The notes under the pieces are model-generated. The model did no database searches. It was not told the origin of the DNA and saw only the letters and a program-made list of their open reading frames with translations. A stretch of DNA of 33,035 nucleotides from Nitrospirota bacterium (GTDB lineage Bacteria; Nitrospirota; Nitrospiria; Nitrospirales; Nitrospiraceae), in NCBI GenBank assembly GCA_020027965.1, contig JAHRHE010000025.1, positions 1 to 33,035 on the forward strand, read 5' to 3'. Below are positions 6,245 through 29,537 of this stretch, one piece after another. A program made the translations under genes and the position numbers. Numbering within the stretch: position 1 is the first letter of the stretch; each line of letters begins with the position of its first letter.

Positions 6245-6493
6245 ATGCCACTGCGCGTGATCATCCCGGGCGAGGAGGAAGGCCAGAACCATACGGGTGG
6301 CGTGCACAACCGTCCTCCGATCCCCGACGGCTCCGCGAAAGCGGAGTGCCCCAAGTTCATGAGCCATGGCCCCTGCGGAGGCGTGCGCAAGGGGGGCTAT
6401 TGCGAAGTGTATCCTGAGATGATGTGTCCCTGGGTCACGCTCTACTTCGAGCTGGAAAAGATCGGCCAGGTGGACTGGATGAAACAAGTGTAA
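6245..6493 (+). CDS. Small four-Cys protein resembling the MTHFR C-terminal domain / MetV
   Basis: This 82-residue protein has four cysteines: C35, C44 (in HGPCGG), C53 (GGYCEV) and C61 (MMCPW), followed by YFELEKIG. This pattern resembles the zinc-binding domain found at the C terminus of some methylenetetrahydrofolate reductases and as the separate MetV subunit of acetogen MetFV. MetV proteins are usually longer (about 200 residues), so this would be a minimal form. The metF gene in this window (9793-10686) encodes only the catalytic barrel, so the two could act together. It starts at the ATG at 6245, 11 nt after the tldE-like stop. The family call rests on recall of the motif. Confidence 0.6.
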   Translation: MPLRVIIPGEEEGQNHTGGVHNRPPIPDGSAKAECPKFMSHGPCGGVRKGGYCEVYPEMMCPWVTLYFELEKIGQVDWMKQV

Positions 6494-6518
6494 GTACGGG
6501 CCTGGTGGGGCGCGGGGT

Positions 6519-6545
6519 ACCCGTTGCTCTGGGAATGCAACGGGT
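6519..6545 (+). repeat. 9-bp stem hairpin, repeat copy 1
   Basis: ACCCGTTGC (6519-6527) pairs perfectly with GCAACGGGT (6537-6545). The same hairpin recurs at 6866-6894 with the flanking GGGTACCCGTTGCTCT conserved and a different loop. It lies 26 nt after the MetV-like stop and has no T-run. Confidence 0.75.
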
Positions 6546-6550
6546 CTAAG

Positions 6551-6690
6551 CTCGCGCGTCGCGCACACAAGAACGGGGGGAGCTGGGTGGCCTGGCTGAC
6601 CCGCGTGCTCGCGGAGCGCGCACTCAAGAACGTGGGAGAGCGGGCGAGGTGGCAGGTGGCCTCCCGTGCTCGCGCACCGCGCACACGGGA
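6551..6690. repeat. About 60-bp tandem repeat, roughly 2.5 units
   Basis: Units begin CTCGCG at 6551, 6608 and 6669 (periods 57 and 61). Each carries a GCGCGCAC-type palindromic core; the first two continue CAAGAACG, then G-rich sequence with GGTGGC. The units are imperfect, so the array is old or under weak constraint. No coding potential is evident. Confidence 0.6.
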
Positions 6691-6727
6691 TCTATCGGTT
6701 CGGAGAGTGATGGATGTGTGCTCGGTG

Positions 6728-6911
6728 GACGCGCGCAGTCTCAGTCCACCCTGCCACCTGCCCACTTGGGAATGGAGACGCTAGTGATCTGGGGAGGGAC
6801 CGACGCGCGCAATTGGGGTCAGCCAAGCCACCGGGTCTTGTGGGAAGGTGGATGATGTGCCGGGTACCCGTTGCTCTCCTTCAATGCAACGGGTGATGAC
6901 GCGCGCAGTCT
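6728..6911. repeat. Dispersed GACGCGCGCA words and second hairpin copy
   Basis: GACGCGCGCAGTCT occurs at 6728-6741 and 6898-6911, with a shorter GACGCGCGCA at 6802. Between them, 6866-6894 holds the second ACCCGTTGC/GCAACGGGT hairpin. With the tandem repeat to the left, almost all of the 461-base gap between the MetV-like gene and queF is repeat. No promoter could be singled out. Confidence 0.6.
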
Positions 6912-6954
6912 GAGGCATCGCCACCAGCCCCTATGGTGGAGAGGGAAGTGAGGC

Positions 6955-16596: not shown

Positions 16597-16824
16597 GTCC
16601 GTCGGGGCGGTGAGAGAAGCGACATCGCGGGTGAGCCATGCTGATGTGTGAACCGGAAGAATGAGCGAGGCCCGACCAAGGTCGGCTGCTGAAGATCAGC
16701 CGAACTTGGATCGGAGAACGCCCCAAATTCTGATTTGGGGGATGGGGGGCGCCGCAGCCATTCCTCCGGTAGCTACAGCAGCTAGGCGAGCACGCGCAGG
16801 AGCCGAACCGCCGCCCCGACGGAC
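16597..16824 (+). ncRNA. Structured RNA element, copy 1 (HEARO/omega-RNA-like?)
   Basis: The 228-nt element is closed by a perfect 14-bp stem (16597-16610 with 16811-16824). Inside are a 13-nt-arm hairpin with 12 of 13 pairs (16676-16709) and an 8-bp hairpin (CCCCAAAT/ATTTGGGG, 16721-16740). Blocks shared with copy 2 are TGCTGATGTG (16639-16648), GCGAGGCCCGA (16665-16675), GGATCGGAGAAC (16708-16719), and GGTAGCTACAGCAGCTAGGC (16768-16787). Stem sequences differ from copy 2 but still pair. The strand is inferred from a U-G wobble in copy 2. It lies in the 348-base gap between the exported protein and the isomerase, ending 2 nt from the isomerase stop. The family is unproven. Confidence 0.7.
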
Positions 16825-16825
16825 G

Positions 16826-17458
16826 TCATTCCACTATCGTTACCGTCATCTCAATCCGCTCCGCCGGGTTGTCTTTCCCGTCACGCGGCTGATTGACGAT
16901 CTTATCCGCCACCCCGATTCCCTTCACCACCTCCCCAAAGACCGTGTACTTGCCATTCAGGAAGGGAGAGTCTTCGACCACAATGAAGAATTGCGAGCCC
17001 GCGCTGTCAGGGTCCTGCGCCCGGGCCATCGACACGATCCCCCGCTTGTGCGGCCGGTCGTTGAATTCCGCCTTGATGGTGTACCCGGGGCCGCCCTGGC
17101 CATACGTCTCCTTCTTGGCCGGGTCCTTGGTGTTGGGATCTCCTCCCTGGATCATGAACCCGGGGATGACGCGGTGGAAGATCGTCCCGTTGTACACGCC
17201 GCCCTTGGCCAGCTTGATAAAATTCTCGACGTGTTTGGGAGCCAGATCGGGAAAAAACTTGATCTCCAGCTCGCCGAACTTCGTCTTGATGACGGCCATG
17301 GGCTCCTTCATCTTCTTCTCTGCCGATTGCCCGGGCGCGGCTGTCGGCGCTGGCTTCTCCGCACCGAGCGCCGGGCTCCCCCAGATCCCTAACATGACCA
17401 CCCCGACTGCCATCGCCGCCAGCGCCGCGACCATTCTTCCACGCCCTTTCCTCAGCAT
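16826..17458 (-). CDS. Exported cyclophilin-type peptidyl-prolyl isomerase
   Basis: The 210-residue protein starts at the ATG at 17458, behind an AGGAGGCG ribosome site. A signal peptide is clear (RMVAALAAMAVGVVMLGIWGSPALGA|E), followed by a Pro/Ala-rich linker. The cyclophilin core then shows NFIKLAKGGVYNGTIFHRVIPGFMIQGGDP, the active-site FHRV, and SAGSQFFIVVEDSPFLNGKYTVFGEVV. It should catalyse proline isomerisation of secreted proteins in the periplasm. Its stop is 2 nt from the structured RNA on the other strand. A longer in-frame start at 17563 lacks support. Confidence 0.9.
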   Translation of the reverse strand: MLRKGRGRMVAALAAMAVGVVMLGIWGSPALGAEKPAPTAAPGQSAEKKMKEPMAVIKTKFGELEIKFFPDLAPKHVENFIKLAKGGVYNGTIFHRVIPGFMIQGGDPNTKDPAKKETYGQGGPGYTIKAEFNDRPHKRGIVSMARAQDPDSAGSQFFIVVEDSPFLNGKYTVFGEVVKGIGVADKIVNQPRDGKDNPAERIEMTVTIVE

Positions 17459-17622
17459 TGCCCCGCCTCCTGTCTGTGAGAGAGTAGCAGTTGGGTGTTC
17501 ATACCTTCTTGGCGAACCGACGACCAGGGACAACTTTGTCTCTCGTCGACTCGTTTTGTCCATTACCAGGAGGACGTCACTGTGGCGAGATGTTCAGCGT
17601 CAGCCTGGTGATCCTCACGAAC

Positions 17623-28189: not shown

Positions 28190-28228
28190 CACTCTCCCCG
28201 CTTTGGGTTGGGCCGTGTGCGAACCCGG

Positions 28229-28435
28229 CGGGGCGATGGCGACAGCGACCTTACGGCCTTGCCGTGCTGATGTGCGTAGCCGCGAAGCGTGCGAGGCCCG
28301 AACGTCCTTGCCTGTCGGAACAGGCGAGGACGGATCGGAGAACCCCCGCCTTGCGGGGGATGGGGGGGGCGCAGCCGCTTCGCAGGTAGCTACAGCAGCT
28401 AGGCAGGGACGTGCAGAGCGGGAGCCATCGCCCCG
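28229..28435 (+). ncRNA. Structured RNA element, copy 2 (HEARO/omega-RNA-like?)
   Basis: The 207-nt element is closed by a 12-bp stem (28229-28240 with 28424-28435). Hairpins are ACGGC-CTT-GCCGT at 28253-28265, 28304-28331 (12-nt arms with a U-G wobble) and 28343-28359 (CCCCCGC/GCGGGGG). It shares four blocks with copy 1, including the identical GGTAGCTACAGCAGCTAGGC at 28385-28404. The stems have other sequences at the same places. It ends 9 nt from the ychF stop on the opposite strand. The family name is a hypothesis. Confidence 0.7.
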
Positions 28436-28444
28436 GCGGTGAGT

Positions 28445-29463
28445 TCAGACATTGAATCGAAAATAGACCACATCGCCTTCTTTGATGATATAGTCCCTTC
28501 CCTCCAGCCGGAACAACCCTTTCTCGCGCACCTTGGCCTCCGACCCGCAGGCGATCAGATCGTCGTAGGCGTATACCTCCGCTCTGATAAAGCCGCGCTC
28601 CATGTCGGAATGGATCTTCCCGGCCTGAGGTGCAGCAAATCATAGGCGGCCCTCGTCAGCCGGACCAGCCCCGACTCGGTGAGGCCGGCTTCCTTCATGA
28701 ACTCCGCGCGATCCTCGGCGGGCAAGGTCGAGAGTTCCGCCTCCAACTGTCCATAGAGGATTACCAGCCTGGCTCCTCTCTTGACGGCCAACTCCTTGAC
28801 CGTTCGCACGAGGGGATCGCCCTCACCGGCTCCTTCAGCGGCGTTGGCGATAAACAGCACCGGCTTGGCCGAGAGCAACTGGCACTCGTTCAAGAACGCG
28901 TGCTCTTCCGGCGAGAATGGCTGGCCGCCGAGCCATTCGCCCTTGTTCAGCAGATCGATGAACTTCTGTACGGCCGCCAGCTCCTTGGCAGCCTTGGTGT
29001 CGCCTGACTTGACCTTCTTTTCGACCCGCTGCTTCCGGCGGTCCAGAGTCTCCAGGTCCGCCAGCATCAGCTCGGTCTCGATCGTCTCGATGTCGCGCAG
29101 CGGGTTCACGCCGCCGCCCACATGCACCACGTCGGGATCCTGGAAGCAGCGGACGATATGCATCAGGGCGTCCACTTCACGAATCTGCGACAGGAACTGG
29201 TTGCCGAGGCCTTCCCCCTTGCTTGCCCCTTCCACCAGACCGGCAATGTCTCTGACTTCCAGGGTGCTGGGCGTCATCTTTTTCGAGCGGAAGATGTCAA
29301 CCAGCTTGTTGAGGCGCGGGTCAGGCATCGGGGCGATCCCGACATTGGTCTCCACCGTGGAGAAGGGATAATTCGCGGCCACCGCGCCGGCGCCGACCAG
29401 CGCGTTGAACACCGTCGTCTTCCCAACGTTCGGGAGCCCGATCATGCCGCAACAGAGTCCCAT
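28445..29463 (-). pseudogene. ychF: Redox-regulated ATPase/GTPase YchF, internal deletion with frameshift
   Basis: YchF is an Obg-like ribosome-associated ATPase of about 363 residues. From the ATG at 29463 the G domain is intact: GLPNVGKTT, NYPFSTVETNVG, DIAGLVEGASKGEGLGNQFL, coiled coil, and the FIANA stretch. After AYDLLHL the frame goes to an unrelated tail and stops at 28555. The real C terminus continues in another frame ([22 protein letters not shown]...[14 protein letters not shown]...YFRFNV) to the TGA at 28445-28447. About 25 residues of the TGS domain (usually containing TYFT..G..E.RAWT) are missing at about 28625-28630. This may be a real mutation or an assembly error. Confidence 0.85.
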
Positions 29464-29470
29464 AACTACC

Positions 29471-29537
29471 GTGACACGTGATGCGTGACGCGTGATGAAT
29501 CCAGCCTTCGCGTCACCTGTCACCCGTCACTCGTCAC
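29471..29537. repeat. GTGACG-type dyad repeat between ychF and pth
   Basis: GTGACACGTGATGCGTGACG on one side and CGCGTCAC...CGTCAC words on the other form an imperfect palindrome (8-bp core GTGACGCG/CGCGTCAC at 29485-29492 and 29509-29516). It runs into the pth stop codon and resembles the repeat at 22815-22910. Confidence 0.6.

What the first reader, a model, noticed from the sequence alone, without database searches (positions are those of the whole stretch)
16597..16824. Conserved structured RNA with compensatory changes, copy 1
Two distant elements (here and at 28229-28435) share four sequence blocks, one of 20 identical bases. Their closing stem and two hairpins have different sequence but retain pairing: 14 bp versus 12 bp; 12-13-nt arms; CCCCAAAT/ATTTGGGG versus CCCCCGC/GCGGGGG. 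Compensatory change between copies is the hallmark of a functional RNA fold. The size and long-range closing stem recall HEARO/omega RNAs of IscB-type nucleases, but no iscB or other nuclease gene is in the window, so these would be free-standing copies. The alternative is a new RNA family.
Basis: partly seen in the sequence, partly recalled or inferred. Interest (0 to 1): 0.87.

Follow-up and report, generated by a model that had tools for sequence, protein, structure and literature searches.

The report
Folded mobile repeat behind Nitrospira genes
A roughly 215-base non-coding element, spread in several copies through Nitrospira-type bacteria, keeps an elaborate folded shape while its letters change and sits in a fixed orientation just behind the stop codons of ordinary genes; it matches no known RNA family and its job is unknown.

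Summary
The two window elements are members of one structured family. A covariance model found 55 copies in 15 of 175 Nitrospiraceae genomes (12 of 22 genera), and none outside that family in 396 genomes drawn from the phylum. A phylogeny-aware covariation test supports 14 of 52 pairs; the nine strongest of all column pairs lie in the predicted helices. The HEARO/omega-RNA reading fails: the Rfam model does not match, real HEARO RNAs of other Nitrospirota look different, and IscB is absent from 14 of 15 carriers. Two features stand out. (1) 22 of 33 free-standing copies end 4-27 nt (mostly 4-14) from the stop codon of a convergent gene; none do so at the 5' end. (2) In three genomes, 18 copies lie inside a ~490-860 bp transposon-like unit with ISL3-like ends; three have perfect 8-bp target duplications. 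The folded strand is antisense to the adjacent gene, and no own promoter was found. Best reading: a new family of non-autonomous mobile intergenic repeats whose folded strand is under selection, perhaps recognised by an enzyme in trans. It resembles REP, ERIC and YPAL repeats in kind but has a far more elaborate conserved core. Function is inferred, not shown.

The parts
16597..16824 (+). Copy 1 of the element, whole, including GTC/GAC closing pairs
   Evidence: CM R1 214 bits; MFE -130.9, z -9.2
28226..28438 (+). Copy 2 of the element, whole
   Evidence: CM R1 193 bits; MFE -137.0, z -7.9
16597..16612 (+). Copy 1 closing stem P1, 5' arm (partner 16808-16824)
   Evidence: fold; covariation in P1
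16808..16824 (+). Copy 1 closing stem P1, 3' arm; next to the stop codon (TCA, 16826-16828) of the convergent cyclophilin gene
16639..16648 (+). Conserved block TGCTGATGTG (5' strand of helix P3)
16663..16676 (+). Conserved junction block GAGCGAGGCCCGAC
16672..16714 (+). Variable hairpin P5 (arms differ in nearly every copy, pairing kept)
   Evidence: covariation; fold
16708..16719 (+). Conserved junction block GGATCGGAGAAC
16721..16740 (+). Hairpin P6, CCCCAAAT / ATTTGGGG
16740..16759 (+). Conserved G-rich block GGATGGGGGG followed by CGCCGCAGCC
16768..16787 (+). Conserved 20-mer GGTAGCTACAGCAGCTAGGC (3' strand of P3/P2)
28385..28404 (+). Same 20-mer in copy 2
16826..17563 (-). Adjacent convergent gene: cyclophilin-type peptidyl-prolyl isomerase (stop codon about 4 nt from copy 1)
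   Evidence: Pfam PF00160; gene
28446..29523 (-). Adjacent convergent gene: ychF GTPase (apparent frameshift near its 3' end); stop about 6-7 nt from copy 2

Best explanation
This is a new family of short (about 215 nt) non-coding, non-autonomous mobile intergenic repeats of Nitrospiraceae. Its + strand is under selection to fold into a closed rod (P1-P4) ending in a junction with two hairpins (P5, P6) and invariant unpaired blocks. Shown: the family, the fold, the strand preference, the multi-copy scatter, and the oriented position of free copies just behind stop codons. Also shown: carriage inside a transposon-like unit with ISL3-like ends in three genomes, with perfect target duplications for three of the copies. 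Inferred: the element spreads because an enzyme supplied in trans recognises the folded strand (as single-stranded DNA or as RNA), with free copies entering behind stop codons in one orientation and ISL3-type transposition moving other copies as a package. At the insertion site its complement becomes a stable 3'-untranslated hairpin of the neighbouring gene's mRNA, which makes the insertion tolerable or mildly useful, as for REP and ERIC repeats.
For: Multi-copy and family-restricted. Fold and covariation. Strand: on a GU-free consensus G-U 55 versus A-C 30 (p 0.009), and the + strand folds more stably in 52 of 55 copies by about 14 kcal/mol on average. Position: convergent stop within 30 nt of the 3' end in 22 of 33 free copies, 0 at the 5' end (p 5e-7), 0 of 19 in the MITE group. 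Mobility: unrelated flanks; left and right ISL3-like ends with perfect 8-bp duplications in L098, L099 and L111; a real ISL3 copy in G010 has a similar terminal sequence. Same gene end occupied by unrelated copies in different genera: ychF and methylmalonyl-CoA mutase, with relatives lacking the element there.
Against: No enzyme was identified. RAYT-type transposases occur with and without the element, and those inspected are not flanked by it. The three genomes with the transposon-like unit show no ISL3 transposase, though they are 72-88% complete. No expression data. One shared locus (L071/L075) looks vertically inherited, so part of the distribution is retention rather than movement. The strand test is modest once conserved wobble pairs are excluded.
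Confidence: 0.55

Rival explanations
1. A trans-acting structured ncRNA made from the + strand, serving as scaffold or guide for an unknown protein, copied around the genome.
For: Invariant unpaired blocks and junction sequences across 12 genera, variable but paired stems, + strand preference.
Against: No sigma70-like promoter upstream of free copies: mean score 4.7 versus 5.0 in shuffles; no constant neighbouring gene; most upstream genes point away from the element.
Confidence: 0.2
2. A 3'-untranslated element of the adjacent gene (terminator or mRNA-end protector), functional on the complementary strand.
For: Stop codons 4-14 nt away in 18 free copies; the complement is co-directional with that gene; it also folds strongly, z -8.5. 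REP repeats show the same placement (PMC3733652).
Against: Wobble pairs and folding energy favour the opposite strand; no T-run after the hairpin was seen in the flanks; the genes have unrelated functions and most relatives examined lack the element there.
Confidence: 0.15
3. A single-stranded-DNA recombination or transposition site comparable in logic to integron attC: folded strand antisense to the gene, directly behind its stop codon.
For: Strand, orientation and spacing; fold conserved without sequence conservation in P1, P4, P5.
Against: No attC-type AAC/GTT core seen at the ends; not in cassette arrays; neighbours are core chromosomal genes; no integrase was tested.
Confidence: 0.12
4. 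Free-standing HEARO / omega RNA of IscB-type nucleases.
For: Similar length and a long-range stem (one search gives a 211-position model; element about 215 nt).
Against: No model match, different sequence and shape, no IscB in 14 of 15 carriers.
Confidence: 0.02

Closest known systems
REP / BIME repeats (GTAG- and CGTC-tagged; PMC3733652)
   Same: Palindromic, multi-copy, intergenic; in REP-rich genomes mostly within 20 bp of the 3' end of the upstream ORF
   Different: REPs are 20-40 bp single hairpins; here ~215 nt with a multi-helix junction, invariant unpaired blocks and a strict antisense orientation; the RAYT genes inspected are not flanked by it
ERIC/IRU, YPAL/RU-2, NEMIS, RUP (bacterial MITE-like repeats; PMC2229807)
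   Same: 100-200 bp, non-autonomous, transcripts with long stem-loops formed by 5'-3' end pairing
   Different: Conserved terminal sequences are replaced here by covarying ends; the core is branched; restricted to Nitrospiraceae
ISL3-family MITE
   Same: 18 copies lie within units with ISL3-like terminal repeats; three have perfect 8-bp duplications
   Different: Free copies (all of those in the window's genome) lack these ends, so the ISL3-like unit is a carrier rather than the element itself
HEARO / omega RNA (RF02033)
   Same: Length, long-range pairing, multi-copy in Nitrospirota
   Different: No sequence or model match; no IscB in 14 of 15 carriers

Membership tests
HEARO / IscB omega RNA (RF02033) | Match to the Rfam covariance model | tested here: not met
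   No hit at gathering threshold, at E up to 10 (copy 1), at E up to 5 (20 loci), or in the own genome; the model works in other Nitrospirota
HEARO / IscB omega RNA (RF02033) | IscB-type nuclease (RRXRR) in the genome or next to the RNA | tested here: not met
   Absent from 14 of 15 carrier genomes; present in four of five HEARO control genomes
ISL3 MITE | ISL3-type terminal inverted repeats and 8-bp target duplication | tested here: inconclusive
   Right-end repeat found for the 18 MITE-group copies in G013/G015/G028, both ends for 13; duplications perfect in L098, L099 and L111, near-perfect or absent in others. Not met for free copies, including both window copies
REP/RAYT repeats | 20-40 bp single hairpin with GTAG or CGTC tag, flanking a RAYT gene | tested here: not met
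   Element is ~215 nt and branched; element motifs not found around the RAYT regions inspected in G000, G013, G015, G019, G035
Bacterial MITE-like structured repeats (ERIC/YPAL type) | Small, multi-copy, non-coding, intergenic, mobile, end-to-end pairing | tested here: met
Integron attC site | R''/R' boxes with AAC/GTT core | tested here: inconclusive
   Not seen at the aligned ends by eye; no attC model was run
sRNA gene | Own promoter and transcript | tested here: inconclusive
   No promoter enrichment upstream; no expression data available

The most novel reading that the evidence does not exclude
A folded-strand mobile element that integrates in one orientation directly behind stop codons by recognition of its single-stranded fold (DNA or RNA) by an unidentified enzyme: a targeting mode I know of for no described bacterial small repeat.
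Probability: 0.2. Interest if true: 0.85.

Novelty: new variant of a known kind. Interest (0 to 1): 0.56.

Why it matters
It adds a well-supported structured family, absent from Rfam 15, to a bacterial family that includes environmentally important nitrifiers. It also shows that mobile bacterial repeats can carry a branched, covarying core rather than a simple hairpin. The oriented, few-nucleotide spacing to stop codons in unrelated genes is a concrete puzzle: either insertion is targeted there, or only that orientation survives. Both are testable.

Tried and rejected
HEARO/omega RNA: rejected. Constant neighbour gene or partner protein: none in 53 fetched neighbourhoods plus the window. RAYT (Y1 transposase) as driver: present in carriers and non-carriers alike, and not flanked by the element where inspected. 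ISL3 transposase in the genomes with the transposon-like unit: none found, genomes incomplete. Own promoter: no enrichment. Insertion into a larger host palindrome or terminator: closing-stem pairing goes only 2-3 bp beyond the model, then falls to chance. Phages, plasmids, viral contigs: no match. Retron, group I/II intron and bridge RNA were considered from anatomy and set aside because the concentric rod with two apical hairpins does not fit them; no models of these were run beyond Rfam.

Full report
Check of the observation. The two elements at 16597-16824 and 28226-28438 share the blocks described, including the 20-mer GGTAGCTACAGCAGCTAGGC. Both fold far better than shuffled sequence (z -9.2 and -7.9). 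A search of the window's own genome (a 3.6 Mb, 263-contig assembly) found seven further near-complete copies plus truncated ones. Seven copies aligned and folded together give 75 pairs, 26 of them with compensatory changes.

Extent of the family. A covariance model from these seven copies finds 55 places in 15 of 175 Nitrospiraceae genomes, in 12 of 22 genera. It finds none outside the family among 396 genomes drawn from the phylum. A 20-letter conserved pattern scanned over 84,980 species returned 32 stretches, all from Nitrospira / Nitrospirae metagenome assemblies. Viral contigs, phages and plasmids gave nothing. Distribution is patchy, from 1 to 13 copies per carrier genome.

Structure. 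From outside in: P1 closing stem, a purine-rich internal loop, P2, P3 (TGCTGATGTG with TACAGCAGC), P4, then a junction with the invariant blocks GAGCGAGGCCCGACC, GGATCGGAGAAC and GGGGATGGGGGG. The junction encloses hairpins P5 (highly variable) and P6. I built a covariation test that keeps the tree and the substitutions per branch. Of 52 consensus pairs, 14 are significant, and the nine highest-scoring pairs of all column pairs are in the structure. The sequence conservation of loops and junctions, together with free variation of P1, P4 and P5 under pairing, is direct evidence of selection on the fold.

Which strand. In a consensus computed without wobble pairs, G-U cells outnumber A-C cells 55 to 30 (p 0.009). 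With the full consensus the counts are 87 to 44 and 65 to 15. The + strand folds more stably than its complement in 52 of 55 copies, by about 14 kcal/mol on average. Copies from a genome are related, so these counts overstate independence. Wobble pairs exist in DNA too, so the test points to a strand, not to RNA over single-stranded DNA.

Where the copies sit. Gene calls by a simple self-trained coding model show that for free-standing copies the 3' end faces a convergent gene in 30 of 33 cases. In 22 of these its stop codon lies within 30 nt: distances 4, 5 (six times), 6 (three), 7 (four), 9, 10, 13, 14, 22, 22, 26, 27. At the 5' end no stop lies within 30 nt (p 5e-7). Two of those 22 (the ychF cases) were set by hand because the gene call was broken by a frameshift or contig end. 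The genes are ordinary chromosomal ones: cyclophilin, YchF, RtcB, ProC, TrpRS, IspG, TruA, methylmalonyl-CoA mutase, and others (names other than cyclophilin and the YchF GTPase domain are from my reading of the sequences). The 3' end of ychF carries a copy in both G000 and G015, and that of methylmalonyl-CoA mutase in both G145 and G031. The copies at each pair of sites are not each other's closest relatives, which suggests independent insertion at the same spot. G146 and G144, about 95% identical in the mutase gene, have no element there, and closer relatives of G000 lack it behind ychF. By contrast L071 and L075 (two genera, same locus) are sister copies, consistent with inheritance.

Mobility. 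In G013, G015 and G028 the element lies in a unit of about 490-860 bp with ends like GGCTCTTCCGGCTTTCGTGTGGG. Both ends were located for 13 copies and the right end for all 18. The direct repeats at the ends are perfect 8-bp duplications in L098, L099 and L111 and imperfect or absent in the others. An ISL3 transposase copy in G010 carries a similar terminal sequence, which supports calling these ends ISL3-like. These copies show no stop-codon preference (0 of 19 in the same analysis group, which also holds two non-MITE copies that were set aside as truncated). Free copies share no flanking sequence, and stem pairing extends only 2-3 bp past the model before falling to chance, so the element proper ends there.

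What it is not. It is not HEARO. The model does not hit it at any threshold tried, although the same model rings in 10 other Nitrospirota genomes; those HEARO RNAs have a different sequence and shape; and the IscB domain is missing from 14 of 15 carriers. No promoter-like signal precedes free copies, so an independent small RNA is not supported, though a non-sigma70 promoter or read-through cannot be excluded.

Interpretation. The best-supported reading is a non-autonomous mobile repeat whose folded strand is under selection. Shown steps: family, fold, strand, orientation, spacing, carriage in ISL3-like units. Inferred steps: recognition of the fold in trans, and tolerance of the insertion as a 3'-untranslated hairpin. 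REP repeats likewise sit mostly within 20 bp of the 3' end of the upstream gene (PMC3733652), and ERIC and YPAL are comparable in size and end-to-end pairing (PMC2229807). I therefore file it as a new variant of that kind, not as a wholly new kind. The branched core with invariant unpaired blocks and the strict antisense orientation set it apart.

Limits. All genomes are assemblies, many incomplete. Gene calls are my own. E-values from the model are rough. No expression or binding data exist here. Absence of a mobilising enzyme was tested only for a few families.

Noticed in passing
window 6480-6940: A different repeat-rich stretch directly behind a stop codon (TAA at about 6491): several GTGCTCGC..GCGCAC palindromes plus two CCGGGTACCCGTTGC..GCAACGGGT hairpins (6520-6544, 6867-6893). 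Related sequence forms the left half of the ISL3-like unit in G013/G015/G028.
   Followed up: partly
L077, L084, L090, L097, L104, L107, L108, L110, L114 (inside the element) and elsewhere: A ~45 nt mini-hairpin CCGGGTACCCGTTGC..GCAACGGGTGATGA is nested in the P4 or P5 loop of many element copies and also occurs outside them: a repeat inserted into a repeat.
   Followed up: partly
L074, L076, L085, L093, L108, L163, L169, L199: A motif CCTCGGCTGACGAAGGGCG recurs just behind stop codons in several genera, with or without the element: perhaps a third 3'-end repeat family.
   Followed up: partly
window 28555-29523 (-): ychF appears frameshifted near its 3' end (about 28620): the reading frame switches before the normal C-terminus, either an assembly error or a broken gene.
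   Followed up: no
L079 4001-4221: Mosaic copy: its outer stem is of the G015 transposon type while its inner part is nearly that of window copy 1, suggesting recombination between copies.
   Followed up: no
G000 contigs C9, C209, C207: Truncated copies: 5' halves in C9 and C209, a 3' fragment in C207.
   Followed up: no
G231, G283 (other Nitrospirota family): Genomes rich in HEARO RNAs and IscB genes, up to 10 RNAs and 14 RRXRR hits in one genome.
   Followed up: no
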